DNA of 64,000 nt from Massospora cicadina (taxonomy: Eukaryota > Entomophthoromycota > Entomophthoromycetes > Entomophthorales > Entomophthoraceae), in assembly GCA_022478985.1 (NCBI GenBank), contig JAKSZP010012114.1, forward strand, positions 1-64,000, in the 5' to 3' direction. The position numbers and the translations under genes were made by a program. Below are positions 6,960 through 56,130 of this stretch, in pieces. Each line of letters starts with the position of its first letter. Position 1 is the first letter of the stretch. A model generated the notes under the pieces. It did not search any database and was not told the DNA's origin. It saw only the letters and a list, made by a program, of their open reading frames with translations.

Positions 6960-7977
6960 GTCTCCCTCTAGATCCTAATTCAAGGGGGAAAAAGGCTGAA
7001 AGAATTGACTGTATACACGTTTTACCACGGTACCCTGAACAATATACACAATTGAGTGTTCGTTGACCCACTTATAAATGACTTTGTAGGTCCCCAACCA
7101 GTTGGTGCCCAATTTGTTATCATGACCTCCCAGCCAATGGTGGTAGAAAAGGACTAGATCACTCAGTTGGAAGGTGTGCAGAGGGTCATGTTTGTCATTA
7201 AATCGACTTGTTTCATCTACTAGTGGTAGCAGATTAGTTCTTGGAAGCCAGGTCCTGAAGTCAGATAATTTCATTGGCAATATTTTGCATAGTGACTTTA
7301 GGGGCTTTGGGGGAGGAATTCTCGAGCATAGCCTGCACTTTAAAAGGCATCTGGGGATTTCATTCATATAATTCTTGGAAGGGCGACATCTTAAGCATTT
7401 GATTATAGCTGATTTTATAGGCCAGAATTGCACTAGGCAAATATTGGGGCCAATGAAAGATGTCAGACATAGAAATTTTCCGGAGGGCTGCAGTTAGAGT
7501 ACCATTTTCCCACTCTACCATTTCATTGGTTGCAGGATGGTAGGGGTTGAAAATACTTAAGTGGATCCCACCAGTTTGGCTTAATCTTCTACCAGTAATA
7601 ATTGGATCTTATGTCCATTATTAAAAATAACTATGTTAGGGCACCCAAGCTGGAGATTCTTTAATTATATAAAAACTGGCGGTAGCTTTTGCTAAAGCAA
7701 AGGGTAGTAATACAGACATCGATGAATCCCCCCCTTGGGTTGGGACCATCTAGTACTAAAAAAAAGGGTAGTAATACAGCTTTTATCCACTTAGTTAAAT
7801 GATCCACTGCTAGGAGGAGGAACAGATGACCATTAGAGGATCCATGGAGAGGTACCAAAGCATCTATGCTAATAGTATGGAAGGGTTCACAGGTTGGAAC
7901 CACTGGATGTTGAGATCAAGGATTAGGTCCATCTTGACTTTTACATACTAGGCAGGACTCCAATACATCTTGGATGG
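6960..7977 (-). pseudogene. element B integrase, C-terminal and core part
   Basis: Minus-strand integrase. From the right: HQDVLESCLVCKSQ (zinc-finger end, about 7970-7920), TISIDALVPLHGSSNGH and LLLAVDHLTKWIKAVLLPF (core start, about 7890-7780), then the C-terminal domain FQLSDLVLFYHHWLGGHDNK to the end YSQFFQPFSPLN and stop near 6975. A 47-bp X insertion at 7716-7762 interrupts the core. Element C is inserted at 7977; the rest of B resumes at 15397. Polypurine-like agagggagac precedes the junction with LTR A. Confidence 0.8.
7716..7762 (+). mobile_element. 47-bp family X insertion in element B integrase
   Basis: Flanked by perfect 17-bp direct repeats AAAGGGTAGTAATACAG (7699-7715 and 7763-7779). 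The insert ends GGGTTGGGACCATCTAGTACTAAAAA and begins with ACATCGATGAATCC, matching the last 3' UTR bases of the longer X copies. A 5'-truncated retroposition event by target-primed reverse transcription is the simplest reading. Confidence 0.9.
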
Positions 7978-8590
7978 TGTTGTAATTTCAGCGATTCCCT
8001 ATATATCTGCCAAAGGGTTTTTCTCACAGGGTTACGCCGACTGAACAATTTGAATGGATGTTATGATGATTGTCAGTTCCTTGGAACACTTATAAACAAC
8101 CAATTATAATAAAAAAGGGGCAAATTCCCCCAAAACACTTCTTTATTTTTAATATAATAAACTAGGCGGATTTCTTCTAGTCCACTTCCCTTTCTTTCTC
8201 TTCTGTCTTGTAAAAACCTCATTCTTCAAAATTCCCTCATTTTGCTGATATCCCAGAGAGCTCAATCAGTACCAATTATTTTGCTTAGTTTTTTTTTCGT
8301 TTTGCCATATTCTCATTGGTTTCAGCTTGTTGTTCTTCAATTATTTATTGCCCTAATTCGAGGCAGTTCAAATTATCTTGTCAAATGTCAAAATCGCCTT
8401 ATTGCTCTATTTTGAAATCAATTTGATATGGCCTGTTATAACCCATTATTGCCTCATCCTAAGGCAATTGATAATTATACCTAAGAAACATCCTCAGCAG
8501 ATTCTGCCCATTGAATCTTCTGCGGAAATTCTACCAATGATTCGTTGGTCATATTTGTGGCTTGTTGACCAGTCATATAGATTTGTGACA
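7978..8590 (-). repeat. 3' LTR of element C
   Basis: On the plus strand it runs from TGTTGTAATTTCAGCGATTCC to AGATTTGTGACA (613 bp). It aligns along its length with the 5' LTR at 14749-15396, for example GGGTTTTTCTCACAGGGTTAC and CAGCTTGTTGTTCTTCAATT in both. It contains the inverted repeat GGGGCAAATTCCCC at 8117-8130. Confidence 0.85.
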
Positions 8591-8602
8591 TTACCCCCCC
8601 TT
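8591..8602 (-). promoter_or_regulatory. polypurine tract of element C
   Basis: Minus-strand AAGGGGGGGTAA directly abuts the LTR start TGTCAC, the expected plus-strand priming site. The same purine run ending in GTAA precedes the 3' LTRs of E (AAGGAGGGGGTAA), F and D. Confidence 0.8.
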
Positions 8603-8643
8603 GACTGGACAATAAGCAGTATGTCTCTTAATCCTCCAATGCC

Positions 8644-9716: not shown

Positions 9717-9719
9717 CTA

Positions 9720-10850: not shown

Positions 10851-10899
10851 TATTTGGGCATGTGGAAGGTCTTGGGATATTCACTGTAGTGTCCCCTAT

Positions 10900-14748: not shown

Positions 14749-15396
14749 TTTTGTAATTTTGGAGATTCCATATATATCCACTGAAGGGTTTTTCGCACAG
14801 GGTTACTTCCACTGAACAATTGGAATGGATGATATGACAATCGTCAGTTCCTAGGAACACATGTAAACAACTGATTATAATAATAATAAGGGGAAATTTT
14901 CCCCCAAACACTTCTTTATTTTTTTTTTTTTTTTTAGTACTAGATGGTCCAACACTTCTTTATTTTAATATAATAAACTTGGTAGATTTATTCTAGTCCG
15001 CTTCTCTTTTTTTCTCCTTTTTACTTCTAAAAACCTCTTTCTTCCTATTCCCTCATTTTGCTTATATCCCAGCGACCTCATTCAGTACTGATTCTTTTGC
15101 TTAGTTTATTTGTTTCTCCATATTCTCATTGGTTTCAGCTTGTTGTTCTTCAATTCTTTATTAAACTAATTCCAGGCAATTCAAATTTATTATTGAATGT
15201 CAACATCTCCTTATCACCCTATTTTGAAGGCGATTTGATACAACCTGTTATAACGCATTATTGCCTCATTCTAAGGCGATTGATATAACTCTGAAATATC
15301 CTCAGCGGATACTGCCCATTGATCTTCTGCGGAATTCTATCAATGATTCGTTGGTCATAATTGTGGCTTGTCATCATGTCATATAGATTCATGACA
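14749..15396 (-). repeat. 5' LTR of element C
   Basis: 648 bp including a 28-bp X insertion (14923-14950) plus its target duplication. Plus-strand ends are TTTTGTAATTTTGG (the inner TG is mutated) and TTCATGACA. Contains GGGGAAATTTTCCCC at 14890-14904. TSD gatgg follows at 15397-15401. Confidence 0.85.
14923..14950 (-). mobile_element. 28-bp family X insertion in LTR of C
   Basis: Flanked by 16-bp duplications AACACTTCTTTATTTT (14907-14922, 14951-14966). On the minus strand the insert is GGACCATCTAGTACTA followed by a pure A run. The other LTR of C at about 8137 lacks it, which gives the empty site and proves insertion. Confidence 0.93.
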
Positions 15397-27400: not shown

Positions 27401-29617
27401 TCAAAACAAAAGATATCTTAGATCAAAATTCCTCAGATTTGCTCATACATTTCAGTAGCGGCTGGATCACTTTTTAACTAGTATATAACTAACTGAAATG
27501 ATCATCTTTATACATCACTTCTTATCGATTATTTTCCTGTTGAGGAGATAATCCCCTTTTGATGATAATTAATGGCAGCTTATGGACCAAAATCATCAAA
27601 GTATTCTCCTTAAAGTTGCACTTTACTCCTACTTTTGCATGAAGACATTGCTGATAAGAATACATTAATTTTTATTAGGTAGGATGATAGCAAGTTCAGA
27701 CATAACTAGAGTTGCAAAATTAATGAGTAAGGCACTATAAGACCAACAGGAAGTAGTGGGGTTAGGATCAGCTGTACCATACTGCTTTGATGTGCTATAA
27801 ATAATGAAATAAGACGTTTTACCAATATGGTAGAAATGATGTTGATTGGAGCGCCACTATCAACAATGGCCCTTACTTTTACTTAGTTAACTAAAATGTC
27901 AGAATAAGTATTATCAAAGTATTATGAAATTTTTTTTATTAAATCAGAGCAGCATCATTAGCCAAATCCAGAGTGTGAATAATTTTAGCGGACCATCTAG
28001 TACTAAAAAATAATTTTAGCGGATATATCAGGAATTATTCTTTGATAGCAGCAATGGAAATTAAAAAGCTAACATCTCTTAAATTTAGATTTTAGAAGTT
28101 CATCTTTATCATCAGCATTTTAGGCTTTTTCTGATAATTAGTGAGTGTAGGGTCGAGTAACCTCTGATATAATTTTGTAATTAATAGCCATTGCTTTAAC
28201 TTGAGTCATCACATTGATATTTGGGCCCATGCTCTGCTGAGAAGAAGTGTAAACAGGTTCATCAGCAAATAGGTTAGAGTGTCTATAGTTGGAGCCCATC
28301 TGGTGAAATTGGGCAACCTGCAGATCTAGAATGTTCTTCATTTAGACTGAAGGGCCTTTTCCTGACTCTTCATAGGCATCTTTTTTCATGACAAAGTTCA
28401 CCTAAATCCTTTGGTTTCTTGATCAAGCACTGAGCAGCATATTGTCCAAAATTTTCGCATCTGTTACAAGTGATATGCAACATATCACTAGGCCATTTTG
28501 GTCCATCAGGTTTTTTTTCCATTTTTTTTGGCAAATTTATTTATGGTTCAGGGTTCTTTCCAAGTTTTGAATTGAAATGCATTTGTTTAAAACTTCAATT
28601 TTGGTGCATCAAAAATTGAGGCCAACACTTTAAGGAGCACCACTATCTGATAGGTGGTAGAGTTGTTGAAAATGCTGATGCCATAGAGCAGTGTAGATCC
28701 TGATAAGTTTAGAGCATTGCCTTCATTTCAAAATGAGCGTCAAAATCACTCATGCTATTAGCTCCCATCAAAAATGGCACCTCTTCATAGAAATAATCGG
28801 CAAATTCCCCATGATTTCATCTTTAGAATTTTATTCCCATAAACCCTTGTTTTTGGTTAGCCATTCATTCAGAGCTACCGAATTCCTTCATAATTGCATT
28901 TTTCGCCTCATTATATGGCCAATTTTTCCCCTTCAAATAAGGCAATACCAAAGTCAGACAAGTGATATTTTAACAATTGATAATATTAACAGTTTTTTTG
29001 GTGATCACTGCAACCAAACATGGTCATTTCAAAGAGTCTGAAGAAGCCAGGGCATTATCCAAATAAAATGTTAGCAATTTCTGGTGGCCCAAAATACATT
29101 ATTATATACAGGCTCTTTTGCAGGACGAGAAGCATGGCTAGCCATTCTGGAGCCAGTAGTGTGTTGTTGAAGATCATTGCTAAAATAGTGGCATAAGCAC
29201 TTGGGATATTTTTGTTGGGCTGAATTCTCTCCATACTACTATCATCTTCAATTAGGTCCTGATCCCCAATTTTGGTTTTTGCATGAAAACAAGTATATTG
29301 ATGTTTTCCATCTCTTATACCTGTTTTTGAGCTGCCCATGGTTCTCTTAGAATACCTAATCGTTCCAAATTCTGTTTATAATGTAACTTTGGACATGAGT
29401 AGATCCTTCTCAACTTTAGTAGTTTGTTGTTCTTATTTAGAAAATTTCCCAAATAATTCATTGTTAACTTCTTTAACAAGGTTGGCTTCTTCTTTCACCT
29501 TGGTAATGAGATCCTCAATTTTGATATATAAGCCTGAGCTGCCAACATCAGGGTAGTCTGGTTCACGCTCTCCAGATCCTTCCACAGCTGATGGATCTCA
29601 CCCTGAACGGAGGACAT
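27400..29617 (-). pseudogene. element G gag and protease (Gypsy 5' half)
   Basis: Gag starts at ATG 29617-29615 (MSSVQGEIHQLWKDLESVNQ); an open part lies at 29055-29339. The zinc knuckle CNRCENFGQYAAQC at about 28468-28427 has Tyr at the His position. The protease near 27890-27850 reads VRAIVDSGAPINIIS with a usable DSG active site, unusual among the copies here. A 16-bp X insertion is at 27993-28008. RT and integrase of this copy are not present next to it: the sequence ends at the X retroposon near 27400. Confidence 0.7.
27993..28008 (+). mobile_element. 16-bp family X insertion in element G
   Basis: Insert CCATCTAGTACTAAAA between perfect 15-bp duplications AATAATTTTAGCGGA (27978-27992 and 28009-28023). 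It is the shortest X event in the window. Confidence 0.9.
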
Positions 29618-31988: not shown

Positions 31989-32117
31989 TGAATTTATTGC
32001 GGGGAAGGCTGACCATGGGATGGACACTTCCGAATATGACTCAGGAAAGATAAACTTAGTACCAGGGGGGCACCCCAGAGAAGCGATGCTATCTCTTGTT
32101 GCCAGCGGGAACGCCAC

Positions 32118-35100
32118 TTATGGGGAGGGGTAGGGAACGTGTGAAGGGGCCGTAGCCACTATTGAGCACGTGTGGAGGAAGGGGTCTGATTTGATGAACC
32201 AGACTGGGAACCAGGAGGAGACCAGCTGCCGGCGACGCGGTGGGAGATATCCAAACATCCATGCTTGAAAGTGGTCCACCAAATGGGACTGGAATCTGTG
32301 GACAGCTTCTGGGAGGGTGGGGATGGAGCCAGTGATGGCATCCAAGACAATCGTGTGGATAGTCCACATGGCGATTGCAACCACCAGAGCACGGAGGGAG
32401 GGTGGAAGGGGAGAGGCCATTGATGAAGCAGACATATCTCTTGACAGACTGAAGGGATGCGTTTGATCCTGACCTAGCAGACGTTGGACTTCGCGCCATA
32501 TCACTTTAGAGGTGGGGCACTTCTCCAGGCGGTGGAACAGCGTTCCATACTGGCCACACACGACACAGGATGAGTGTAAAGCATTAATGCGCTCAGCTGT
32601 ACGATACACCTGCCTCAGGCAGCGCCACACATGGGAGCGGACTTGAGGCTGCAACAGAGGATGATGTGCATTTTTCAGTTAGTCTTTTGGGTCTCAGTGG
32701 AATAAGGGATGTCCATCATGTCCAGGTAGTCCACCCTGGATAGGACTTGGGGTCGAATGGGGATCACGCCATCATGGATGGGTAGCCCCTGTACCTCTTG
32801 TGTGAACTGAGGAGAGGGGCGGCCTCTTCGGGTTGTATGTCCACTAATACAAATTCTCCACTCTGCGCTTCGCATGGAGAGTAGGATTCGTTTGTAGTGG
32901 GTTTTAGTCCCATGAGGATCTGTGGCCGATGTGTGTGATGCGAGGTATTTTATCAGGGAGTGGGGGTTTGATGGATTGTTGAGGCCCAAGGCTCGGGAGA
33001 AGTTAGAGTGGGCCGTGCGGGACCAGTGTTGGGATGGGAGTGTAGGAGCAGTGACGGCCGCGATCCAGGTGCCCAGGATCTTGGCAGCATGGGCTTTGAA
33101 GTCAAGCAGGCCCATGCCACCTTGATGATGAGGGCCAAACATTACCTCTAGTCATACTGGTGGAGGGCGGCCTGACCAAAGCCATCCTTGTAGCAAAGCA
33201 TACAGGGATTTGAAGAAGCTTGGGGAGAAGGGGATGGCATGGGCTCCGAACCAGACTTTGGATAGGAGCATAGAGTTGGCAAGAACAACCCTTCCAGTGA
33301 GGGTAGTAGGGTGGGCTCTGAGAGAATCGGTTTGCTTCGTCACGTTGTCCAGTATATGGCACTCCATTACTTCTGACACATATCCACCTGCCTCCATCCA
33401 CACGCCCAGATGGCGCACCGGTCCTATGGTAGGACGTGGCACAAAGGGGAGCACCAGTGGAGCGGTGTGTTTTGAGTTAGTAAGGCGTGGATGTGGGAAA
33501 GCAGATGGGCCGGGTTGAGAACTACTTTCTGGGGCCCAGCAGTTCTGAAACCGACCAAGGAGGATGATTTCGGTTTTGGAGGCGTTTAGTGCCGTGTTGC
33601 TTACCCGGGAATATTCCTGGATGAGGGCTTCAAGCGCACGTGCATCTTTGTTATTAGACACCCCCACCACGCAATCATCTGCAAATGCCATCATCTTGAC
33701 TGGGGTTTGGCCTGGCACATGGACCCCAATGAGGTGGGCATTCACATCTCGCAGTAGTGGGTCAAGGCTGAAGTTTTATAAAAGTGGGCTGAGGGGGTCC
33801 CCTTGTCGCAGGCCCCTTTGAGGGCGGACTACTTCTGTTAGAAAGCCTGGACCATGCACTGCCATTGTTGCAGATTCTGTGAGCAGCATCACCCAGTTTA
33901 TGAAGCGGGGGGTAGGCGGAATTGATGGAGGCAGGCCCTAAGGTATTCCCAGTTTACTCTATCATAGGCCTTTTGTTGGTCCAAGAATACAAGTGCCCCA
34001 GAGGCTATGGACTGACACACATTAGCCACAGAGTGCACGTTATCCCAAATCGACCTTCTGGGGATGAAACTGAATTGTTCTGGGGAGATGGTGGCAGATG
34101 CTATAGTCCCTAACGGTTAGCCATGATTTTTTTAAAATTTTGGTGTCTGTGTTTGTTAGAGAAATGAGGCGCCAGTTGGCTAAGTCAAGCTTATCCCCTT
34201 TCTTGAAGAGTGTGACAGCAAAGGCCTCATGTCCTCCTGGTAGGAGGCGCGTTTCCAACATGCTTTGGTTAAGTGAGGCTAGTAGCAATAGGGATATATA
34301 TTTAAAATATTTTTTTGTAGAACTCATATGGAATGCCATCTGAGCCTGGGCATTTTCAGTTTGGCGCACCGCGAATGGCTGCCCATAATTCATTTGGAGT
34401 AATTAAATTCATTATTTCTGGGTATCAGAAAATGGTGCAGATATGAGCTCGGTCAAGAAATTCTGCCATTTCAGCTGGATGAATTGGTTTGGCTCAGTAT
34501 AACTCAGAGTAATATTTTTGCATTTCGATTGCCACTTTGGCCGGTATGTCCATGATAGAATTATCCAATCTTCACACCTGTGTGCAGGCCACACTCTGGC
34601 ATGGTGCAAAAATTTTTTTTAAAGAAGTATGCGGTGCACTTGTCACCTTTAGTGATGCGTGTGGCCCTGTTTTGGACACAAACCTGATGTTTATGTTGCC
34701 TTTTGAGTGCGTTGAGGTGGGTGGCTGCCTCCACCCACTTCTGGCCCCATGCAGGGCTTTATCCTGTGGCTGGAATGTTGGACTTAAAGTGGGCCAATTC
34801 CACCAGCGCATGCAAGATAACTGTTGATGTGGCTTGTGAGCATCTGGAGGAGAGATGGCGATAGTGGCAGATGGTGTCCTCTTTGAAAGTTGCCCATGTG
34901 GAAATGGGGTCCGCGCAAAACAGTGCAACAAACGATTTCGCCAAAGTTGCCTCTTCCACCCACGTGGAAAATCCTGGTGACGCGAGCTCGGGTGGGCATA
35001 TTTTGCACCAATGTGGGGCCTTTGCAACTAAGACGGGTAAGTGGTATGTTATCGAGACCAGTCAGTGGTCAGAGAATTATATTTTTGTTGTTTTGAAGTG

Positions 35101-35743
35101 GGAGATGTGGGGTTGTAATTTTGCCAGCGTTAGAATAAGGTTGATGCGGGTCATGGACCTTAATTGGCCGTTGTGGAAGTGGGTATGTATCATGTTTTCG
35201 AGCAGTGGGGCATGTCAGGCAGCGCATCCATTAACCCAAGGGTGGCTTTTAGAATGCATAGTTCTACATGACCCTGTGGGGCATGGGGTGAGGGCGGCCA
35301 CCGATCCATTGGTGAGGTTAGCCAACAGTTCATGTCGCCAACTAGGAAAGAATTGGGTGTAGCGGGAGGGATTTGACTGATGAGAAAAATTCCTGATGCT
35401 CATGTGCACCATTTGGGGCGTAGATGTTGATGATTGTGTGCACAACATCAGCCCACGAGAAGGTGACAATGAGCACTCGGCCATTTAGGATTGTTTCTGA
35501 GGATGTGAATTTGAAAAAATTATTTTTCTGAATTAGCACCCCACAGTGCTACGACCAAAAGGATAGGGACGTGATGAGCATTGTTTTCCAAGCTTCCCCA
35601 GAACCTCGTGGACAGTGAGACTCCTGGATGGCCAGGATATCCATGGGTAAATTGTTTTGTAAAAAACTCAGTTTCCTAGCCTGGGATGGGGAGGCCTTGA
35701 GTCTGGCGATATTCAGCATCCCTAGAGTGAAGGTTTCCCCCAT
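32118..35743 (-). pseudogene. LINE-2 ORF2 (endonuclease, RT, zinc finger)
   Basis: Starts at ATG 35743 (MGETFTLGMLNIARLKASPS). Endonuclease motif MDILAIQESHCPRG (about 35650). RT: WRLISLTNTDTKI near 34170, AYDRVNW near 33950, MMAFADDCVVGVSNNKDARA at 33690, ASKTEIILL. C-terminal zinc finger SSCVVCGQYGTLFHRLEKCP near 32570 and ending YPSP at 32118. Catalytic FADD is kept, but frameshifts and stops (for example around 33150, 33800, 34400) split the frame. Confidence 0.82.
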
Positions 35744-36047
35744 CGCACCTTAGGTGTGAGGGGGTGGGCCCCTGGGCCCACCAGCCTCTTCCAGGTCCCC
35801 ACGGGCTTTCACAGCAGTGCGGGTGTTAGCAGCAATGCTATCAGGGTTTTTGTTAAATTTTTGCAGAAAGAGTCACGTTGGCTTTGGCCTTCGCTTTTTG
35901 TTTTCCCAACATTGGACAAATTTTTTGCGGTGCAGATAAGTTAGTGCACCATTGAGCGGGGCAAAACTTTTTTTTCAGTTGGATAGGTCCCAAGTCAGTT
36001 TTGACCGGAGCTTGGGTGCAGTAAATTGGGTGAGATCAAATCTCCCA

Positions 36048-37162
36048 TCAGATCCTTGGATTGAGGGCCCACTCGGCATGGGCCTCCCAATCTGATTGGG
36101 TGATAGATTCCTGAGTCACTTCTGCTGCAAAGGTCTCCATGTCCTCCTGGCGTTGTGAGTGTGGGATGGTGGTGGTGGCCTTGGCCGCTTCCTTGGCCGC
36201 GGCCCTACAGGCCTGCTTGGCCTTCTTCCACTCCTGCGGGGAGATGGGCTTTACCAATAGGTAGCAGCCTTGTGCTCCCCACGGGAAAGCCTCCTTGGTG
36301 CTTGCAGTTGGTTCGTAGTGCGCCTCTCCGCTGGCCATGGCCGCTGAGGGGTGCTCTAGGAATGTGACGCCCTCCTTGATGGGGCATGCATGCACCTTAT
36401 GGCTGAATGTGTCACAGTGGGTGCAAATGGGGGCGCGCTGTCCACGGTTACCCAGAATGGGTGGGTGGTGTGCCCTGCGATGTCAATAAAGGTGGAGTGC
36501 GGGATCTGGGTTAGGTCCTTCGTGATCTCCTCAGTTGGGGTCAGAACTGCGATGGCTTTGCCAGTGCACAGGTGTGGCATCAGTGTGAAACGTTACATTT
36601 CAAAAGATTGTATTTTGCCATATATGGCGAGACCATCTTTCAGGTGTTGCTCCAAAATGTCACGTTTTACCGTAGTAGGCAAAAAGTCACATGTGAGGAA
36701 AATTTGGTTTGATTTTGTCCATCTGGTGCATTTGGTTTCAATGACCCGTTGCCCTTCAGAGAGGTCGACCACTATGCGCACCACTGCAGCCTCATCTGCT
36801 GCTATTTTACTTTCAAAACCTAAGTCAAGCCAACTGCGTGACATGGAGTGAGGTACAATGTATACTGCGGTCAGGAAAATTTTGTGTACATCTTCACAAA
36901 ATTTTTCCCATAAGGCCATTTTTTGGATGTCCAGATACACACAGACTCCAAATTCCACCGACGAAAGTGGCTGGGAGTGTGGCGTGTTGATGCACTGGTT
37001 GCATCATGCTTGCCATGTGAGTATCTCCAGGGAAATTGTGACCGCCAGTTTTTTGAGATTTTTTTCTATTCCGCCAGATTCTCCGGGGCGTTTTCAAACA
37101 TTAGAGGCCGTGGGTCTTCCGCCTGCTCCTCTTGCCTTGCTTGCCCAACTGCTCCCAGACAT
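36048..37162 (-). pseudogene. LINE-2 ORF1 (zinc-knuckle RNA-binding protein)
   Basis: Start ATG 37162-37160 (MSGSSWASKARGAGG). Open segment FGVCVYLDIQKMALWEKFCE from 36958 to 36593; then frameshifted PHLCTGKAIAVLTPTEEITK and the C-terminal half with ...HACPIKEGVTFLEHPSAAMA and a Lys/Ala-rich stretch (EWKKAKQACRAAAKEAAKAT). The knuckle is CTHCDAFGHKAHAC in LINE-3; here the first part is changed (TVTHSAIRCMHAC). Confidence 0.75.
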
Positions 37163-37271: not shown

Positions 37272-37288
37272 GGAATAAATATCTCTTT
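37272..37288. repeat. target-site copy 2
   Basis: GGAATAAATATCTCTTT, between the 5' end of LINE-2 and the 22-bp X insertion. Confidence 0.85.
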
Positions 37289-37310
37289 TTTTTAATACTA
37301 GATGGTCCCA
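37289..37310 (-). mobile_element. 22-bp family X insertion between LINE-2 and LINE-3
   Basis: Minus-strand TGGGACCATCTAGTATTAAAAA, flanked by perfect GGAATAAATATCTCTTT copies at 37272-37288 and 37311-37327. One internal base differs (AGTATTA instead of AGTACTA). Confidence 0.9.
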
Positions 37311-37327
37311 GGAATAAATATCTCTTT
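37311..37327. repeat. target-site copy 3
   Basis: GGAATAAATATCTCTTT, shared as right duplication of the X insertion and left duplication of LINE-3. Confidence 0.85.
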
Positions 37328-37472
37328 ATTTAAATTTAAATTTAAATTTATTGCGGGAAGGCCGACCATGGGACGGACACTTCCAATTATGACTCAGACG
37401 AGACAAAACTCAGTACCAGGTGAGGCACCTCAGAGAAGCGATGCTATCTCTTGTTGCCAGCGGGAACGCCAC

Positions 37473-40400
37473 TTATGGGAAGGGGGAGAGAACGTGTGTA
37501 GGGGGCGTATCCACTATTGAGCATGTGTGGAGGAAGGGGTCCGATTTGATGAACCAGACTGGGAACCACGAGGAGACCAGCTGCCGGCGACGTGGTGGGA
37601 GATATTCAAACATCCACGCTTGAAAGAGATCCACCAAATGAGACCGGAATCTGTGGACAGCTTCAGGGATGGTGGGGATGGATCCGGCGATGGCATCCAA
37701 GACAATTGTGTGGATAGTCCACATGGCGATTGCAACCACCAGAGCACGAAGGGAGGGTGGGAGGGGGAGGCCATTGATGAAGCAAACATATCCCTTGACA
37801 GACTGAAGGGATGTGTTTGATCCTGGCCAAGCAGACGTTGAACTTCGCGCCATATTACTTTAGAGGTGGGGCACTTCTCCAGGCGGTGAAACAGCATTCC
37901 ATACTGGCCACACACGACACAGGATGAGTGTAAAGCATTAGAGCGCTCAGCTGTACGATACACCCGCCTCAGGCAGCGCCACACATGGGAACAGACTTGA
38001 GGCTGCAACAGAGGATGGTGTGCGTATTTCCAGATAGTCTTTTGGGTCTCAGTGGAATAAGAGATGTCCATCATGTCCAGGTAGTCCACCCTGGATAGGA
38101 CATGGGGTCGAATGGGGATCACGCCATCATGGATGGGTAGCCCCTGTACCTCTTGTGTGAACTGAGGAGAAGGGCGGCCTCTTCAGGTTGTATGTCCACT
38201 AATACGAATTCTCCACTCTGCGCTTCGCATGGAGAGTAGGACTCGTTTGTAGTGGGTTTTGGTCCCGTGAGGACCTGTGGCCGATGTGTGTGATGCGAGG
38301 TATTTCATCAGGGAGTGGGGGTTTGATGGATTGTTGAGGCCCAAGGCCCGGGAGAATTTGGAGCAGGTCGCGCGGGACCAGTGTTGGGATGGGAGTGTGG
38401 GAGCAGTGACGGCCGCAATCCAGGTGCCTAGGATCTTGGCGGCATGGGCTTTGAAGTCAAGTAGGCCCATGCCACCATGATGATGAGGGCCAAACATGAC
38501 CTCTAGCCGTACTGGTGGAGGGCGGCCTGACCAAAGCCATCCTTGTAGCAAAGCATACAGGGATTTGAAGAAGCTTGGGGAGAAGGGGATGGCGTGGGCT
38601 CCAAACCAGACTTGGATAGGAGCATAGAGTTGGCAAGAACAACCCTGCCAGTGAGGGTAGTAGGGTGGGCTCTGGAGAGAGGCGATTCGCTTTGTCACGT
38701 TGTCCAGTATATGGCCCTCCATTACTGCTGACGCGTATCCTCCTGCCTCCAACCACACGCCCAGATGGCGTACCGGTCCTATGGTAGGTCGCGGCACAAA
38801 GGGGAGCATCAGTGGAGCGTTGTGTTTTGAGTTATTAAGGTGTGGACTTGGGCGAGCAGCTGGGCTGGGTTGGGAACTACTTGCTGGGGCCCAGCAGTTC
38901 TGAAACCGACTAAGGAGGATGATTTCAGTTTTGGAGGCGTTCAGTGCCGCGTTGCTAACCCGGGAATATTCCTGGATGAGGGCTTCAAGCGCGCGTGCAT
39001 CTTTATTATTAGACATCCCCACCACGCAATCATCTGCAAATGCCATCATCTTGACTGGGGTTTGGCCTGGCACATGGACCCCAGTGAGTTGGACATTCAC
39101 ATTTCGCAGTAGTGGGTCAAGGCTGAAGTTGTATAAGAGTGGGCTCAGGGGGTCCCCTTGTCGCAGGCCCCTTTGAGGATGGACTACTTCCGTTAGGAAA
39201 CCTGGGCCGCGCACAGCCATTGTTGCAGATTCCGTGAGCAGCATCACCCAGTTAATGAAGCGGGGAGGTAGGCGGAATTGTTGTAGGCAGGCCCTAAGGT
39301 ATTCCCAGTTTACTCTATCATAGGCCTTTTGTTGGTCCAAGAATACAAGTGCCCCAGAGGCTGTGGACTGACACACATTAGCCACAGAGTGCACGTTATC
39401 CCAAATCGACCTTCTGGGGATGAAACTGAATTGTTCTGGAGAGATGGTGGCAGATGCTACAGTCCCTAAACGGTTAGCCATGATTTTTGTTAAAATTTTG
39501 GTGTCTGTGTTTGTTAGAGAAATGGGGCGCCAGTTAGCTAAGTCTAGCCTATCCCTTTCTTGAAGAGTATGACTGTAAAAGCCTCATGTCCTTCTGGTAG
39601 GAGGCACGTTTCCAACAGGCTTTGGTTGAGTGAGGCTAGCAGCAATGGGGATATGTATTTAAAATATTTTTTGTAGAACTCATATGGAATGCCATCTGGG
39701 CCTGGGCATTTTCGGTTTGGCGCACCGCGAATGGTAGTTCATAATTTGTTTGGAGTAATTACTTTCATTATTTCCGGGTATCAGAAAATGGTGCGGATAT
39801 GAGCTCTGTTGAGAAATTCCGCCATTTCGGCTGGCTGAATTGGTTCGGCTCGGTATAACTTGGAGTAATATCTTTGCGTTTCAATTGCCACTTCAGCCGG
39901 TGTATCCACGATAGAATTATCCAATCTTCGCACCTGTGTGCAGGCCACGCTCTGGCGTGGTGCAAAATTTTTTTGAAGAAGTATGCAGTGCACTTGTCGC
40001 CTTTAGTGATGCGTGTGGCCCTGTATTAGACACAAACTCGATGTTTGTGTTGCCTTTCAAGTGCATTGAGGTGGGCTGCTGCCTCCGCCCACTTCTGGCC
40101 CCATGCAGGGCTATATCCTGAGGCTGGAATGTTGAACTCCAAGTGGGCCAATTCCACCAGTGCACGCGATATAACTGCCGATGTGGCTCGTGAGCATCTG
40201 GATGAGAGATGGCGATAGTGGTGGATGGTGTCTTTTTTGAAAGTTGCCCATGTGGAAATGGGGTCCACACAAAATGGTGCAACAAACGATTTTGCCAAAG
40301 TTGCCTCTTCCACCCACATGGAAAATCCTGGCGACGCAAGCTCTGGGGGGTGGATTTTGCACCAATGTGGGGCCTTTGCAACTGTGACAGGTAAGTGGTA

Positions 40401-41097
40401 TGTTATCGAGACCAGTCAGTGGTCAGAGAATTCCATTTTCGTTGTTTTGAAGTGGGAGATGTGGGGTTGGAATTTCGCCGGTGCTAGAATAAGGTCAATG
40501 CGGGTCATGGACCTTAATTGGCCATTGTGGATGTGGGGATGTGTCATGTTTTTGAGCAGTGGGGCATGTCATGGCAGCGCATCCATTAACCTAAGGGTGG
40601 CTTTTAGAATGCGTAGTTCTATGTGACCCTGTGGGGCATGGGGTGAGGGCAGCCACCGGTCCATTGGTGAGGTTAGCCAACAGTTCATGTCACCAATTAG
40701 GAAAGAATTGGGGGTAGCAGGAGGGATTTGACCGACGAGAAAAATTCCTGATGCTCTTGTGCACCGTTTGGGGTGTAAATGTTGACGATTGTGTGTGCAA
40801 CATCAGCCCATGAGAAGGTGACAACGAGCACTCAGTCATTTAGGAATGTTTCTGAAGATGTAAATTTGAAAAAATTGTTTTTCAAATTAGCACCCCACAG
40901 TGCTTTGACCAAAAGGATAGGTATGGTAGGAGCATTGTTTTCCAAGCATCCTCAGAACCTCATGGGCAGTGGGTTTCCTGGATGGCCAGGATATCCATGG
41001 GTAAATTATTTTGTAAAAAACTCAGTTTCCTAGCCCGGGACGGGGAGGCCTTGAGTCCGGCGATATTCAGCATCCCTAGAGTGAAGGTTTCCCCCAT
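37473..41097 (-). pseudogene. LINE-3 ORF2 (endonuclease, RT, zinc finger)
   Basis: Starts at ATG 41097 (MGETFTLGMLNIAGLKASPS). Endonuclease MDILAIQETHCP near 40985 with QETH. Open RT frame 39481-38183 has FSFIPRRSIWDNVHSVANVC, FLDQQKAYDRVNWEYLRACL, GLRQGDPLSPLLYNFSLDPL and KMMAFADDCVVGMSNN (FADD intact). A short shift follows, then the zinc finger CVVCGQYGMLFHRLEKC near 37925-37870 and C-terminus to 37473. Frameshifts in the endonuclease (40100-40900) and around 39500-39760 disable it. No RNase H domain is apparent. Confidence 0.85.
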
Positions 41098-41224
41098 TGC
41101 ACCTTAGGTGCGAGGGGTGGGCCCCCTGGCCCACCAGCCTCTTCCAGGTCCCCATGGGCTTTCACAGCAGCATGGGTATTAGCAGCAACGCTATCAGGGT
41201 TTTTGTTAATTTTTGTGGAAAGTG

Positions 41225-42517
41225 TCACGTTGGCTTTGGCCTTCGCTTTTTGTTTTCCTGACGTCGGACAAATTTTTGTGGTGCGGAAAGTTTGGTGCAC
41301 CGTCGAGTGGGGCAAAAAAAAATTTTTTTGGTTGGGATAGGTCCCAAGTCAGTTTCAACCGGGGCTTGGGTACAGCGATTGGGTGAGATTGAATCTCCCA
41401 TCAGATCCTCAGATTGAGTGGCCCATTTGGCTTGAGCCTCCCAATCTGATTGGGTGATGGATTCCCAAGTTGCTTCCGCCACGAAGGTCTCCATGTCCTC
41501 CTGGCGTTGTGAGTGTAGGATGGTGGTGGTGACTTTGGCCACTTCCTTGGCCGCGGTCCTACGGGCCTGCTTGGCCTTCTTCCACTCCTGTGGGGAGATG
41601 GGCTTTACCAATAGGTAGCAGCCTTGTGCTCCCCACGGGAAAGCCTCTTTGGTGCTTGCGGTTGGTTCATAGTGCGCCTCTCCGCTGGCCATGGCCGCCG
41701 AGGGGTGCTCTTGGAATGTAACGCCCTATTTAATGGGGCACGCGTGTGCCTTATGGCCGAACGCATCACAGTGGGTGCAAATGGGGGGCGCGCTGTCCAC
41801 GGTTACCCAGAATGGGTGGGTGGTGTGCCCTGCAATGTCAATAAAGGTGGAGTGCGGGATCTGGGTTAGGTCCTTCGTGATCTCCTCAGTTGGGGTCAGA
41901 ACTGCAATGGCTTTGCCGGTGCACAGGTGTGGCATCAGCATGAAATGTTGCATTTCGAAAGATTGTATCTCGCCATATATGGTGAGACCATCTTTCAGGT
42001 GTTGCTCCAAAATGTCACGTTTTACCATAGTAGGCAAAAAGTCAAACGTGAGGAAAATTTGGTTTGATTTTGTCCATCTGGTGCATTTAGTTTCAATGAC
42101 CCATTGCCCTTTGGGGAGGTTGACCACTATGCGCACCGCTGCAGCCTCATCTGCTGCTATTTTGCTTTCAAAACCTAGGTCCAGCCAACCGCGTGCCATG
42201 GAGTGAGGTGCAACGTACACCGCGGTCAGGAAAATTTTGTGTACATCTTCACAAAATTTTTCCCATAGGGCCGTTTTTTGGATGTCCAGATACACACAGA
42301 CTCCAAATCCCACCGACAAAAGTGGCTGGGAATGTGGCGTATTGATGTACTGGTTGCATCGTGCTTGTCACACGAGTATCTCCAGGGAAATTGTGACTGC
42401 CAGTTTTTTTAGATTTTTTTCTATTCCACCGGATTCTCCGGGGCGTTTTTGAACGTTAGAGGCCGCGGGCCTTCCGCCTGCTCCTCTTGCCTTGCTTGCC
42501 CAACTGCTCCCAGACAT
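41225..42517 (-). pseudogene. LINE-3 ORF1 (zinc-knuckle RNA-binding protein)
   Basis: Start ATG 42517-42515. An in-frame stop replaces the Trp codon of LINE-2 near 42369; the main open stretch 42319-41726 reads VGFGVCVYLDIQKTALWEKF ... to the intact knuckle ICTHCDAFGHKAHACPIK, then a TAG replaces the Glu codon of LINE-2 (PIKEGV). The C-terminal half 41692-41225 is open (MASGEAHYEPTASTKEAF, basic tail KFVRRQENKKRRPKP). One nonsense change at the knuckle separates two otherwise intact halves. Confidence 0.8.
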
Positions 42518-43533: not shown

Positions 43534-44001
43534 TGTCGCGATTCCAATATGACTGGATGATAAGCCCTAAGTTGATATGGCGGAATGTATGGAATCTGCT
43601 GGAATCAAACTGGTACTGGTAATTTAAGTGCATTGAAATGAAGCATTTGGCGAATTGAGAGGATTTATGCTGAGATTTGATACAAATAAGAGAAAGTCAA
43701 AAAGGAAAGCAGTATAGAAGAGTACCAAGCGGAGGAAGCATCTGGCTGAGGAACTGAGGTATAAAGAGTCTGATGGAAGATACAAGGAAGGAGGTTTTCA
43801 CAAGAATAGGAGCGCGCAGATAAGTCTGCAATTTATAGTAAAATAAAAGTCGTAATAAGGGGCAATAGCTCCATACTTATTTTATTAAAAGTTTTATTAA
43901 AAGTTGGTGATCCTCATATCATCAAATTTGGTTGCTCAGTGGCTCATACCTTGTGCAAGACCAATTTAGCAGAATCGAGTCACAAACGCCAATGATTAAC
44001 A
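43534..44001 (+). repeat. 5' LTR of element E
   Basis: 468 bp, TGTCGCGATTCC to GATTAACA. TATAAAG at 43760-43766 is a candidate promoter; AATAAA near 43846 and the GGGGCAATAGCTCC hairpin at 43859-43872 mark a likely R/polyadenylation region. Confidence 0.92.
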
Positions 44002-46150: not shown

Positions 46151-47502
46151 GGAGTAATCCCTGTTTGCTACCAGCAACTGAGTCGGTGGACCAAGATCCT
46201 CCCCAACCAGATATATGAGTATAAGGGAATCCTGCTTCAAGAAACGCGCCTTTATAAGCTTACCATCTGGACACCAGGGCATAATAGGGACTGGGCTCAA
46301 AATTGAAGTCCCTAAGGGGCTTTATGGAGAAATCCTGGCGCCTCATCAGCACTTGCAGCTAAAACCACACGTAGCTCCAGGGTTATTGTTTCCTGGAAAT
46401 GAGGAGGTAAAGGTGCTGCTCGCGAACCTACAGAAGGAGACAATAACAATCAGGCGGCACCAAGTGGTGGCTTACCTACGCTTCACCACTATTGGGGAAG
46501 TTAATCATATTCATGACTTTGGCTCATGGGAAGATCTCAAACTACCAGCTCACTCCTCATTCAGTGTACTGACCGTGGTTCCATGGGAAGCCCTCACAGG
46601 ATTATTGGCGGAACAACAAGATAAGGCTATGGCCTTAATTGAAAAATATTGGGATATTTTTGCTAATGATGATCATGACCTGGGGTGCGCTCAAGGGGTG
46701 GTACATTGGATAGATGTGGGGGATCACCCTCCCATTCATTCATGACCTATTAGACATTTAAAAGCAGCAGAAGAGGTTGTCTCCAATGAAGTAGATAAAC
46801 TTTGAGCAAAGTATGCTAGAGCTGTCAAACAGTCCATGGGCGTCGCCTGTACTCATTATCAAAAAGAAGGATGGCACGAACTGAGTGGTTATTGATTATC
46901 ATAAACTCAATAACATAACAAAGAAGGATTCTTACAATCTTCCACGGATTGATGATGCATTAGACTGATTGGGTGGGGTGAACTATTTTTCTGACATGGA
47001 TCTGATCTCGGGGTATTGGCAGATCGAATTGCCATTAATGGAACAGGAGAAATGTGCAATCAGCACCTTGAGAGGATTGTTCCAGCTGACGCACATGCCG
47101 CAAGGGTTGTGTAAAGCTCCAGCTACATTCCAGCATGCCCTGGATACGATTTTAGGTGATTTAAAGCTGTTCTGCATCTTAGTTTACCTTTACAACATCA
47201 ATGTGTTTTTGTGGACATCTACAGAGCATCTAGACCACTTGGAGCAATTGTTTCAGTGCCTCGCCGTCACTAATATAAAAAATAAGCCAAAAAAGTTCCA
47301 TTTCTTTAAGGAGCAATTAGAATATCTCAGGTTTGTCATGGATTCAAATGGGCTTAAACTGCAGCCAGCTAAAGTGGAAGCAATAAGCAAGATGACTCGC
47401 CCAGTGAATAAGCGGGACATTCAAGTGTTTCTGGGAATGGTTGGGTATTACCAACGGTTCATTCCCAATTTCAGCGTATTGGGGCCCCATTTTTTGAGTT
47501 AA
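46106..47502 (+). pseudogene. reverse transcriptase of element E
   Basis: Linker 46215-46745 (GLYGEILAPHQHLQLKPHVA; HQVVAYLRFTTIGEVNHIHD) is followed by RT. TGA stops at 46743, 46882 and 46966 lie at positions where the motif expects other residues (S-R-P, N-x-V). The open core 46969-47502 holds YFSDMDLISGYWQIELPLME, MPQGLCKAPATFQHALDTIL and LVYLYNINVF: YLDD is YLYN. Ends FLGMVGYYQRFIPNFSVLGP. Confidence 0.82.
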
Positions 47503-49241: not shown

Positions 49242-49708
49242 TGTTGCGATTCCAATATGACTGGACAATAAGCCCTAAGTTGATATGGCGGAATGTATGG
49301 AATCCGCTGGAATCGAACTGGTACTGAAAATTTAAGCGCATCAAAATGAGGCATTAGGAAAATCAAGAGGATTTATGCCAAGATTTGATACAAATAAGAG
49401 TAAGTTTAAAAGGAAAGCAGTATAGAAGAGTACCAAGCTGAGGATGAGTCCAGCTGAGGAACCAAGGTATAAAGAGTCTGATGGAAGATACAAGGAAGGA
49501 GGTTTTTACAAGAATAGGAGCGCGCAGATAAATCTGAAATTAATGTAAAATAAAAGTTGTAATAAGGGGCAATAGCTCCATACTTATTTTAGTAAAAGTT
49601 TTATTAAAAATCAGAAACCCTTATATCATCTAATTTGGTTGCTCAGTGGCTCATACCCTGTGCAAGATCAACTTGGTGGAATTGAGCCACAAATGCTGAG
49701 AATTAACA
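49242..49708 (+). repeat. 3' LTR of element E
   Basis: 467 bp, aligned throughout with 43534-44001. TATAAAG at 49468-49474; hairpin GGGGCAATAGCTCC at 49566-49579; ends GAATTAACA followed by aatcc. Confidence 0.92.
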
Positions 49709-52870: not shown

Positions 52871-53980
52871 TTAGTGAGCACAAAATTTAAACCTTTTGTG
52901 TTTACTACACAGGGTTTTGTGATTGGCTTCTAAAAGATATGGTTGTTTGATAGTTGTATAAAGACAATTTTCTTTTGTTTTTTTCCCCTTAAAGTGGTTT
53001 TATTCTCGTTAAGTATTCACCAACAGACAGGTACTGATGATCTTCCTTCCAATAATTTGAGGAAAATTCAGATAAAGGAAAATTTCCGGTAACTCTTACA
53101 CAAAAGAACTTGAAAACAATAATAGATAAAGGAAACTATCTCTTTAAATCTTACATTCAAAAATCATATCAGATTATATTGTTATCTAACTAATTGTCTG
53201 CAATTGTCTTCCAAAATGGTCTATTTTATTTAATAGAATAAGAGGTTTAGATAAGGAAGTTTTTATCAACTTTTTAGTTGGCACCTCAACGAAAGCGGCA
53301 TTCCTCGCCAATGAAATAACCTAAAGAGTCGCACCAAAATGATTATCATTTCATCCACCTAGTTAATACCCACCATTGACTAGATTAAGACCCTTCATGG
53401 GTTAGATTCTAAAACAGCATGTCCTAAAGCCCTTATCCAACCTCAGCATATTTACTATTAATTGCAAGTAGTTTGCTTAATTAACAGGACAATTTACCCA
53501 TCTACAGCAGGCCACTTTACTCAGGCTAACCTGCAAGCTACTGCAACGAAAAGCATTGTCATTGATTCAGTAACTCCAATTTTTTATTTATAAGTAGACA
53601 AATCTTGATTGATCCACGTAAGAAAGTCAATTTCTAATATTAAACTAACATTTGAAATCATTAAAAAATTTTCAGAGATGGTCATCAATGAGCCTAAACG
53701 TCATACTTGAAATAAAATTCAAAATAGTCTAAACTAATTTTTCATATGAGAACATCTCCTAACAGTAGATATTGAACATCATTAACACCAATACCCCTAA
53801 GTTTGATAAATAGTAAGTGAACCAAAGCGAGATAAGAAAGAAATTTATTCATAATCTGTCACAGTTGGATATTTTGAGCAATTTAAACCTTAATACATAC
53901 CATTTTGATCAAAGACTTACTGCTGTTCCAAGAGTAAGGAAGAAGTCGTTTTAAAAGAGCTACAGCAGCTTATAAATCCG
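52871..53980 (-). repeat. probable 5' LTR of element D
   Basis: Begins after a degraded primer-binding site (minus strand TTGTGCTCACTAA, 52871-52883). The start resembles the LTR-like block at 29664 (AAACTTTTTGGTAGTTTAC... against AAACCTTTTGTGTTTAC). No long ORF, AT-rich; the outer end is not located. Confidence 0.4.
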
Positions 53981-53989
53981 GCTTTGTAA

Positions 53990-54900
53990 TGTCCCTCCAT
54001 GAGTCCTTGGGCGTCGCCCCTTATTATAGTGTGAAAGAATGATAAGAATAATTACAAAAGAGAATGATTGGTGATGATCTAATGAACCAACAAGATTTTT
54101 ATCTCCTACTGCGCATTTATGTTGACTTAAAATGAATAAGAGGGTCGCTCTACTTCTCAAAAATGAACCTAGCAAGTGTATGCTGGCAAATGGAGCTGTC
54201 ACCAAAAATTTAGGAGAAGTCTATGCTGCTCCAGCCAAGGAATATACAAACCAACATGTATGCCACAGGTCTTGTGAAATTTTCCAGCTACCTTATAACA
54301 AGTGCTAGCTCATTTTTTGGTGATATGAAGATGTCAAGTATGCTCAAATACATGGACGATGATGATATTCATCAAGATGTTCTAGTATCAATTACTTGAA
54401 GAATGTTATTATTCATTTAAGAGATAAAATCAAGCTTAAGTGAAGCAAGTGCTTTTTTCTGAATTGCCAGTTAGAATTTCTCATCCATTAAATGAGCCAA
54501 AGAGAAATTGGGCCTTAGAAAGGGAAAGTTGAAGCTTTTGCCAAGATGAGTCACCCAAGAGCATGAGAGATGTCTAGGTGTCTTTAACATGGTGGGATAC
54601 TATCATCAATTCATGATTAACTTTGCATACATTGCTAAGCCACTCACGCACCTGCTGAACAAAGGAGTAAATTGCATTTTGGAACAAGAGCAAGAAGTTG
54701 CCTTCACCAGCTCAAGCATAAGCTAATAAAAGCCCAATATTGATATAAAAAGATTTGCAAGACCTTTTACACTACACTGATGCCAGCAACGTGGGTATGA
54801 GCACCATTTTCATGAAGTTGGGTGAAGAAGATTAGATCATCATATAGAGTTCTACTCAAAGACTTTTGGAACATCTAGAATCTATTGGCCAGTTTCTTTG
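53990..54900 (+). pseudogene. Gypsy fragment J, RT and RNase H remnant
   Basis: Plus-strand RT wording: SPWASPLIIV near 54005, FSKMNLASVCWQMELSPKI near 54150-54215, then palm remnants (MYATGLVKFSSYL, GDMKMSSMLKYMDDDDI near 54320-54370) and WALERES...MSHPRA. RNase H start LHYTDASNVGMSTIFMKLGE near 54770-54830. Badly decayed; no LTR recognised. Confidence 0.65.
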
Positions 54901-55289
54901 TATTATAACCTATTATTAGTCATAATACCATCCTATGGCTTCCTTGGACTAATTTGTTATTAGAGAAAATACTTTGGAAACAATTTAGACCAGACTAGAT
55001 AAAGTAAAACGTTTTATTTACTTAAATGAGGGGATGTGATAGTCTATTAAAGAGCGCGCATTTTTTTTGAGGATATTGGTCACTAATATTTACAAGACCT
55101 TCCATAGTCCTTGAGGGAGCCTTGATTTTAGGTTGTAGAAGGATGGCCCTTTGCGACTTACAAGGGTTTTATATTTTTTCTGACCCTTTTTATTTTGGAG
55201 ACAATGGTTCAATCGAAGGATTTGTAGGCAGTAGTAAAATTTTGATCAATAGCAAACTCATCTGAGGGTTGATTCATGTATGAAATAAA

Positions 55290-56130
55290 TTAAAGTTTGT
55301 CTTTTCTGAAAATATTCCCCTCAAGATCTTGCCAAGGGGGCATGTACTCTGGAGACTTTTTTATGGACTCAATCAATGACATTCCCTGTCTTGAAGAAAG
55401 TGATGAGATACCATCTAGTACTAAAAAAAGAAAGTGATGAGATATTTGCGCCATGTCAGTATATACTTTATAGGGGCCAGACCACAACATATCAAGCTTA
55501 TGGACTCTTTCTCCAGGTTGGTAAAGGTTGGATAATGCTAAGTCTCCTAATTATAATCAGGCATGAGGGGTTTCATTTTATTATCTTGTTCAGTTTCTCT
55601 TATAATTGTTCCTAGGTTTTTTTGACGCCAAAGCCTGAAGCCTAAAAATCACCTCTTCTAGTTTTCTTATGGCTATATTAGTGTGTCAAGAGGAGAGGTT
55701 TCCAAGATGGGTTGGACATTAGAGGGTAACATGGGGTCCCACCTGTATAGAGCCTTGAACAGGGGCACCCTATTAATATGGTTCTAGCTTAACCAATAGG
55801 CTATCAGAGCTCCAGGGAGATACTTGTTCCATCATGTCAGATCAGTTTGTGTCATTTTGCGAATATTAAAGGTGGGTATACTATTAGATCAGTCTATGGC
55901 CTCATTAGTGGAGGGATGATAGGGGGCTGTAGAGGCTTAAAATGCACCCAAAAGTAGATTTATTTAGTTACAACATATGATAGAAGTTTTTGTTCCATTA
56001 TCAGACAGGAGGAATATTTGGCTGCCATGTAGGTTAAAGACTTGTTTAAGTAAAAATGAAGCAATGGCCTTAGCGGTGGTGAACACTACTGATGTGGCTC
56101 TTTTGCAAGTGGTTTGACCTACCATCAATT
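55290..56130 (-). pseudogene. Gypsy fragment H, integrase core and C-terminus
   Basis: Minus strand: LLSDNGTKTS near 56010 (catalytic Asp), TAPYHPSTNEAID near 55920, and C-terminal DLALSNLYQPGERVHKLDML then WSGPYKVYTDMAQIS at 55560-55450, ending PPWQDLEGNIFRKDKL at 55290. Interrupted by a 17-bp X insertion. Confidence 0.7.
55411..55427 (+). mobile_element. 17-bp family X insertion in fragment H
   Basis: CCATCTAGTACTAAAAA between perfect 17-bp duplications AAGAAAGTGATGAGATA (55394-55410 and 55428-55444). Confidence 0.92.

What the first reader, a model, noticed from the sequence alone, without database searches (positions are those of the whole stretch)
7716..55427. Family X leaves ultra-short retroposition scars (16-47 bp) with full target duplications
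Five loci (7716-7762, 14923-14950, 27993-28008, 37289-37310, 55411-55427) hold inserts that all end CCATCTAGTACTAAAA (one base differs at 37289) and each is bracketed by a perfect 15-17-bp direct repeat. Sequence shows directly that only the last 16-47 bases of one 3' terminus were inserted, in both orientations. Long target duplications with an A-rich 3' tail are established hallmarks of target-primed reverse transcription. Inserts this short, recurring five times in 64 kb with nearly the same 5' stopping point, are unusual: either the reverse transcriptase falls off at a fixed structure or a small RNA with this tail is the template.
Basis: partly seen in the sequence, partly recalled or inferred. 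Interest (0 to 1): 0.9.

Follow-up and report, generated by a model that had tools for sequence, protein, structure and literature searches.

The report
Thousands of ultra-short LINE insertion scars
In this genome one family of jumping genes usually stops copying itself after only 15 to 54 letters, at two fixed points around a small RNA hairpin at its tail, and still seals the tiny piece into the chromosome, so its insertions are either tiny scraps or, in most other cases, thousands of letters long.

Summary
All five inserts and their perfect 15-17 bp target duplications are as described. The 16-base tail occurs exactly 32,266 times in the 1.47 Gb genome; the reversed control 0 times. It is the 3' end of a LINE (X) with ORF1-like, endonuclease and reverse transcriptase frames, up to about 6.5 kb. 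Of 104 copies picked only by the tail, 73 are 15-35 nt inserts, 21 are 44-54 nt, none falls at 55-500 nt, 1 is about 515 nt and 9 are at least 3 kb. The first stop lies in the 3' arm of a predicted terminal hairpin. The second lies mostly 5-6 nt upstream of its 5' base. Microhomology at the joins is at chance, so the template sets the ends. A sister tail with a similar predicted hairpin leaves no such scars (0 of 20 stop in it), so hairpin stability alone is not enough. Best reading: target-primed reverse transcription that usually aborts on the LINE's own 3' hairpin. A short 3' RNA fragment remains a live rival for the second class.

The parts
7699..7779 (+). Scar 1 (second-stop class): 47-nt insert 7716-7762 starting ACATCGATG, with 17-bp target duplications 7699-7715 and 7763-7779
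14907..14966 (-). Scar 2 (hairpin class): 28-nt insert 14923-14950, element on the minus strand, 16-bp target duplications 14907-14922 and 14951-14966
27978..28023 (+). Scar 3 (hairpin class): 16-nt insert 27993-28008 (three more element bases GGA shared with the duplication), 15-bp target duplications 27978-27992 and 28009-28023
37272..37327 (-). Scar 4 (hairpin class, one base changed in the tail): 22-nt insert 37289-37310, minus strand, 17-bp target duplications 37272-37288 and 37311-37327; lies just beyond the 3' end of a LINE Y copy
55394..55444 (+). Scar 5 (hairpin class): 17-nt insert 55411-55427, 17-bp target duplications 55394-55410 and 55428-55444
2872..2925 (-). 3' end of a related family (Z) with a hairpin of the same predicted shape and the same last eight bases TAGTACTA before the A tail; a comparison family, not a scar (coordinates approximate at the 5' side)

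Best explanation
The scars are target-primed reverse transcription products of one LINE family (X), an APE-endonuclease LINE that looks L1-like. Shown by sequence: insertion at AA-type targets, a short A tail next to TAGTACTA, and only the LINE's own 3' end copied. In about 70% of the sampled exact-tail copies (73 of 104) the copy ends in the 3' arm (or, in a few, the C run) of a predicted terminal hairpin (GAUG-AA-UCCC...GGGA-C-CAUC), in about 20% (21) just beyond its 5' base, and in about 10% (10) it runs on, mostly for kilobases. Shown: even 15-nt inserts can have 15-19 bp target duplications, so second-strand cutting and sealing do not need a long cDNA. Inferred: the hairpin is the handle by which the X protein holds its RNA; the polymerase must pull through a stem its own protein grips, usually fails at one of the two borders of that grip, and is processive once free. 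The aborted cDNA is then joined to the upstream DNA end without needing microhomology.
For: 104 exact-tail copies split 73 / 21 / 10 into 15-35 nt, 44-54 nt and long; target duplication of at least 12 bp in 59 of 73 and 18 of 21, against 1 of 300 random places. Of the 10 long, 9 are at least 3 kb and 1 is about 515 nt. Genome-wide counts fall 13% over three bases from TCTAG.. (37,178) to CCATCTAG.. (32,266), then 62% over the next eight to GGTTGGGACC.. (12,143). Hairpin-class 5' ends peak 1-3 nt upstream of CCATC (19, 10 and 10 of 73), the first bases of the G:C stem. Of 60 copies past the hairpin, 33 stop 1-7 nt upstream of its 5' base (21 at ACATC, 8 at AACATC) and 27 run on; genome-wide 729 of 2,350 keep the exact upstream sequence. 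Microhomology is at chance in both classes. A-run lengths are alike in all three classes (medians 7-8). The source LINE has Exo_endo_phos, RVT_1 and a sub-threshold zf-RVT match.
Against: Family Z shares the predicted hairpin shape, with lower computed energy (-17.0 against -11.4 kcal/mol), yet 0 of 20 sampled Z copies stop in it and 1 of 20 is short. The X hairpin is not more stable than dinucleotide shuffles (z -0.65, 114 of 500 as stable). The second stop is sharper than a stalled polymerase would suggest and lies 5-6 nt beyond the stem, where no barrier is predicted. Protein binding to the hairpin is inferred from other LINEs, not tested here. Collapse of long repeats in the assembly could undercount long copies. 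The 100 genome places sampled are the first listed (contigs C1-C7), not random.
Confidence: 0.58

Rival explanations
1. The 44-54 nt class is copied from a short 3' fragment of the LINE RNA. A 5'-to-3' exonuclease, or another nuclease, trims the RNA to 5-6 nt before the hairpin and leaves a stub of about 41 nt plus the A tail that still carries the whole predicted hairpin; the X enzyme copies it to its end. The 15-35 nt class is still a polymerase stop.
For: The 5' end of this class is almost fixed: of 33 stopped copies 21 begin at ACATC and 8 at AACATC, 5-6 nt upstream of the stem, which is what a run-off end looks like. Microhomology is at chance, as PMC2912911 reports for full-length L1 ends (passages).
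Against: Microhomology is also at chance in the hairpin class, so it does not separate the two. No RNA data are available here. A-run lengths are like those of long copies.
Confidence: 0.3
2. A separate small non-coding RNA or short SINE with the X tail is the template for all scars.
For: The inserts are short and numerous, and LINEs of several clades share tails with SINEs (PMC3747384, passages).
Against: The 73 hairpin-class 5' ends are spread over 14 positions, not one. The inserts hold only LINE 3' UTR bases plus, in some, a few extra bases, and the hairpin class lacks half of the predicted hairpin. No SINE body was seen among the 104 copies; all 10 long ones carry LINE X sequence.
Confidence: 0.06
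3. Ordinary 5' truncation with a smooth distribution of lengths.
For: 5' truncation is the rule for LINEs; PMC3747384 states that defective members range from 100 to 1,000 bp (passages). One copy of about 515 nt fits.
Against: 0 of 104 copies fall at 55-500 nt, while 94 are short and 9 are at least 3 kb. LINE Y in the same DNA has 9 distinct copies with 1.4-5 kb in view (several cut by the ends of the fetched stretches) and no tail-only insert among 53 repeat-flanked inserts.
Confidence: 0.03
4. The target sets the ends: the cDNA anneals by microhomology to the upstream DNA end, or is trimmed back by host repair.
For: 17 of 41 hairpin-class joins without extra bases show at least 1 bp of microhomology.
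Against: A simulated null gives the same rate (0.41 and 0.41); the second class is 0.45 against 0.50. Trimming would not be expected to stop at fixed template positions.
Confidence: 0.03

Closest known systems
5'-truncated L1 insertions of mammals
   Same: Target-primed reverse transcription at TT/AA-type sites, A tail, target duplications of about 15 bp, loss of the 5' part.
   Different: Human L1 insertions have medians of 394 bp (somatic) and 1,240 bp (germline) in PMC12016303 (passages). X scars are 15-54 nt with two template-set stops. Nearly 80% of truncated L1 ends show microhomology (PMC2912911, passages); X scars do so only at chance.
Stringent-type LINEs with a 3' stem-loop (ZfL2, UnaL2, SART1, some plant and algal L1-clade LINEs)
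   Same: Special sequence or a stem-loop at the 3' end next to a short repeat or A tail. In ZfL2 the stem-loop is bound by the LINE protein and is essential (PMC4176376, passages); plant and green-algal L1-clade cases are reviewed in PMC3747384 (passages).
   Different: The passages I read do not describe most insertions ending at that stem-loop. Need for the hairpin in X is not tested.
R2 and R1 5' truncations of Drosophila
   Same: 5' truncated and full-length copies with extra non-templated bases at some joins (PMC2718515, passages); 18 of 59 X hairpin-class joins and 9 of 42 second-stop joins have extra bases.
   Different: R2 is site-specific and most of its truncated joins show microhomology; X stops are at fixed template points.
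Human L1 ORF2p on structured template RNA
   Same: ORF2p recognises the A tract and engages an RNA hairpin stem while starting cDNA (PMC10830416, abstract and passages), a precedent for a polymerase holding a stem.
   Different: Different element; arrest at the held stem was not described in the passages I read.

Membership tests
Non-LTR retrotransposon (LINE), APE-endonuclease type | Endonuclease and reverse transcriptase domains in the source element | tested here: met
   L010: Exo_endo_phos 3.1e-10, RVT_1 8.8e-34, zf-RVT 9.6e-06 just under its cut-off
Non-LTR retrotransposon (LINE), APE-endonuclease type | Insertions with target duplications and an A-rich 3' tail | tested here: met
   77 of 94 short copies with a duplication of at least 12 bp; A runs median 7-8
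L1 clade | Position of the reverse transcriptase in a tree | not tested
   Only a similarity search: the best hit is a plant record named 'Line-1 retrotransposable element orf2 protein' at 40% identity; no tree was built
L1 clade | TT/AA-type target preference | tested here: met
   Duplication starts A 0.90, A 0.84, preceded by non-A 0.94 in 77 copies
Stringent-type LINE | Stem-loop at the extreme 3' end | tested here: inconclusive
   One predicted hairpin in three tail variants and a similar predicted hairpin in family Z with changed pairs, but not more stable than shuffles; an alignment-based count of pair changes was not made because the sequence alignment put the arms out of register
[quoted passage not shown]
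   Needs an assay
SINE | Own RNA body with a polymerase III promoter | tested here: not met
   Inserts are 15-54 nt of LINE 3' UTR sequence, some with a few extra bases; no tRNA gene in the window
Ordinary 5'-truncated LINE copies | Broad, smooth length distribution | tested here: not met
   0 of 104 at 55-500 nt

The most novel reading that the evidence does not exclude
LINE X carries a built-in gate at its 3' end: its own recognition hairpin blocks its polymerase at two fixed points, so about nine insertions in ten abort after 15-54 nt yet are sealed as proper insertions, while those that pass run on, mostly for kilobases. The genome then holds tens of thousands of micro-retroposons that record polymerase stops in living cells at close to single-nucleotide resolution.
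Probability: 0.45. Interest if true: 0.86.

Novelty: new variant of a known kind. Interest (0 to 1): 0.74.

Why it matters
Why LINEs are truncated is an old open question: RNA decay, polymerase fall-off and early second-strand synthesis are all proposed (PMC2718515, passages). Here one genome holds some 32,000 exact-tail copies, of which about 90% of a sample are scars with two template-set stops and almost all-or-nothing lengths, with families Y and Z as built-in comparisons that lack them. It shows that full target duplications can form with a 15-nt insert, and it makes the question directly testable with one short RNA and one enzyme. It also suggests that repeat annotation, which is not built for inserts this short, may miss most of a family's insertions.

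Tried and rejected
Chance: reversed control 0 against 32,266, and 1 of 300 random places with a repeat of at least 12 bp. Ordinary truncation: rejected by the gap in lengths. Microhomology: a first within-class shuffle suggested an excess in the hairpin class, but that null ignored half of the ways a match can arise; a simulated null removed the excess, so I report chance. Unusual hairpin stability: not supported. 'Any such hairpin makes scars': contradicted by family Z. Covariation count on an alignment: abandoned because the sequence alignment put the hairpin arms out of register. Rfam found nothing in the window at its gathering thresholds. Host identity: not determined; two protein searches gave no clear host name. 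Literature: searches returned no paper; searches (25 of 40 papers listed; 2; 2; 1; 6; 15 of 39 listed) listed papers, and none of the listed titles or abstract starts describes such ultra-short, fixed-stop LINE insertions. The library holds open-licence PMC papers only, and I read passages of eight of them, none in full. Genome counts wanted but did not complete: the GGTTGGGCACC.. pattern for Z and the ACATCGATG.. pattern for X.

The hairpin-class counts were recounted on the 104 copies alone.
Full report
Check of the observation. A scan of the window for any perfect repeat of at least 13 bp around a 4-90 nt insert (low-complexity repeats left out) found six, and five are these.

Genome-wide scale. 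The window belongs to a 1.47 Gb assembly of 16,968 contigs. The exact 16-mer CCATCTAGTACTAAAA occurs 32,266 times, the reversed control 0 times. The host was not identified.

Sample. The tool lists the first 100 places, all on contigs C1-C7; I fetched the surroundings of all 100 and added the 4 exact copies of the window: 104 distinct copies, chosen only by the 3' tail and so without bias on 5' length. Classes: 73 begin in the zone TTGGGTTGGGA or the C run just upstream of CCATC; 21 begin at or near ACATCGATG; 10 are long. A duplication of at least 12 bp was found in 59 of 73 in the first class (9 more with 9-11 bp, 5 with less) and in 18 of 21 in the second (2 with 9-11, 1 with less). In those 59 and 18 the inserts are 15-35 and 44-54 nt; for the other 17 the length rests on where the match to the LINE tail ends. 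A search of the same kind at 300 random places gave 1 repeat of at least 12 bp.

The long copies. L010 and L021 are about 6.45 kb, L012 about 6.1 kb, L022 about 6.1 kb (about 240 nt short of the 5' end), L014 about 515 nt. For the other five, small pieces upstream matched LINE X about 3 kb upstream in all five and at the 5' end in three (L062, L069, L088); the 5' pieces of L083 and L104 did not match. So 9 of 10 are at least 3 kb and 6 of 10 reach the 5' end. None of the 104 falls at 55-500 nt.

What LINE X is. L010 holds an ORF1-like frame, an Exo_endo_phos domain, RVT_1 and a zf-RVT match just below cut-off. The best hit in the protein search is a plant record named LINE-1 ORF2 at 40% identity. 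Target duplications begin AA (0.90 and 0.84 of 77) after a non-A base, as expected for an L1-type endonuclease. I did not build a tree, so L1-clade membership is not claimed.

The two stops. The 3' tail folds into one predicted hairpin, GAUG-AA-UCCC(CCC...GGG)UU-GGGA-C-CAUC; the two lower stems stay the same in three tail variants. In the first class the ends lie 0-16 nt upstream of CCATC with a peak at 1 nt (19 of 73) and then 2 and 3 nt (10 each): read on the structure, the polymerase has opened the weak lower stem, passed the bulged C, and ends at the first bases of the G:C stem. The bait holds CCATC, so ends inside it would be missed; but genome-wide counts agree: 37,178 for TCTAGTACTAAAA (control 169), 32,266 three bases further, 12,143 eight bases further still. 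The tool calls its counts lower bounds, and mutation adds to the losses, but 13% over three bases and 62% over the next eight are not one smooth decay. For the second stop I took 60 consecutive listed copies that match GATGAATCCCCCCTTGGGTTGGG (2,350 genome-wide, 100 listed): 33 begin 1-7 nt upstream of GATG, 21 of them at ACATC and 8 at AACATC by match to the LINE (where the duplication ends in A the last base could be either's); 27 run on, all with LINE X sequence 50-150 nt upstream; 30 of the 33 have a duplication of at least 9 bp. Exact AATAAACATC upstream is kept in 729 of 2,350.

What sets the ends. If the cDNA ends were chosen by annealing to the target, microhomology would exceed chance, as PMC2912911 reports for 5'-truncated human L1 (passages). 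With a simulated null that counts both sides of the join, microhomology of at least 1 bp is 0.41 observed and 0.41 expected in 41 hairpin-class joins, and 0.45 and 0.50 in 33 second-class joins; 18 and 9 joins with extra bases were set aside. The earlier shuffle had an unfair null. The ends thus look set on the template side.

Comparisons in the same genome. LINE Y (window 32052-37050 and 37406-42405, minus strand) ends in CAATAAATT without this hairpin. In the window and the 10-kb stretches (264 kb, about 258 kb distinct) 9 distinct Y copies at 84% identity or more show 1.4-5 kb each, several cut by the stretch end, and none of the 53 repeat-flanked inserts there carries a Y tail, against 18 with the X tail; those stretches were chosen around X copies. 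Family Z (window about 2872-2925, minus) ends in the same TAGTACTA and has a hairpin of the same predicted shape, GUGG:CCAC in place of GAUG:CAUC, at -17.0 kcal/mol against -11.4 (the Z stretch folded was longer). Its tail occurs 1,491 times. Of 20 sampled, 0 stop in the hairpin, 1 is short (L199, 51 nt, weak 10-bp repeat, starting about 4-5 nt upstream of the stem), 1 is 159 nt (L191), and 18 run on at least 95 nt upstream. Against X (67 of 98 at the equivalent bait) the difference has P about 4e-9. This is the strongest result against the simplest form of my reading: a hairpin alone does not make scars; something in X, most likely how its protein holds or opens the stem, does.

Mechanism. 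Shown: target-primed insertion, source LINE, two template-side stops, nearly all-or-nothing lengths, 15-19 bp duplications even at 15 nt. Inferred: that the hairpin is the handle of the X protein, by analogy with ZfL2, where the protein binds the stem-loop and needs it (PMC4176376, passages), and with human ORF2p engaging a hairpin stem (PMC10830416, abstract and passages). Also inferred: that abort happens at the two borders of that grip. The second border could instead be the 5' end of a trimmed RNA; exonucleases that stop a few bases before a structure are recalled from general knowledge, not from a call. The site also abuts the AATAAA signal, so a bound 3'-end factor is another possible block.

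Novelty. The pieces are known: LINEs, 5' truncation, 3' stem-loops. A family in which about 90% of sampled exact-tail copies are 15-54 nt scars with two sharp stops is not described in the passages I read; the searches used are named in Tried and rejected. I rate it a new variant of a known kind.

Noticed in passing
window 32052-37050 and 37406-42405 (-): Two copies of another LINE (Y), 91% identical, head to tail on the minus strand; tail CAATAAATT followed, in one, by TTTAAA-like repeats.
   Followed up: partly
window 43534-43986 and 49242-49693: Direct repeat pair of about 453 bp, 88.5% identical, flanking Gypsy-like frames on the plus strand: probably the two LTRs of one element.
   Followed up: partly
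window 46182-46745 (+): Frame inside the Gypsy-like element with a weak dUTPase match (E 6e-4, below the curated cut-off).
   Followed up: no
L010 about 1593-2345, also L021 and L022: LINE X copies carry a 376-bp tandem duplication in the ORF1 region, about 94-96% alike.
   Followed up: no
L022 about 2566 (-): A 6.1-kb LINE X copy lacks about 117 bp of its 3' part, including an upstream GGCTC-TTAG-GAGCC hairpin, yet has a 17-bp target duplication.
   Followed up: no
LINE X tail: The second stop coincides with the last A of AATAAA, and both CATCGATG and TAGTACTA in the tail are perfect palindromes.
   Followed up: partly
L199 (family Z): The one short Z copy of 20 begins about 4-5 nt upstream of its hairpin, close to the relative place of the second stop of X.
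   Followed up: no
L118: A second-stop scar with an 18-bp duplication that seems to sit inside another LINE X copy, since LINE X sequence matches 50-150 nt upstream of it.
   Followed up: no
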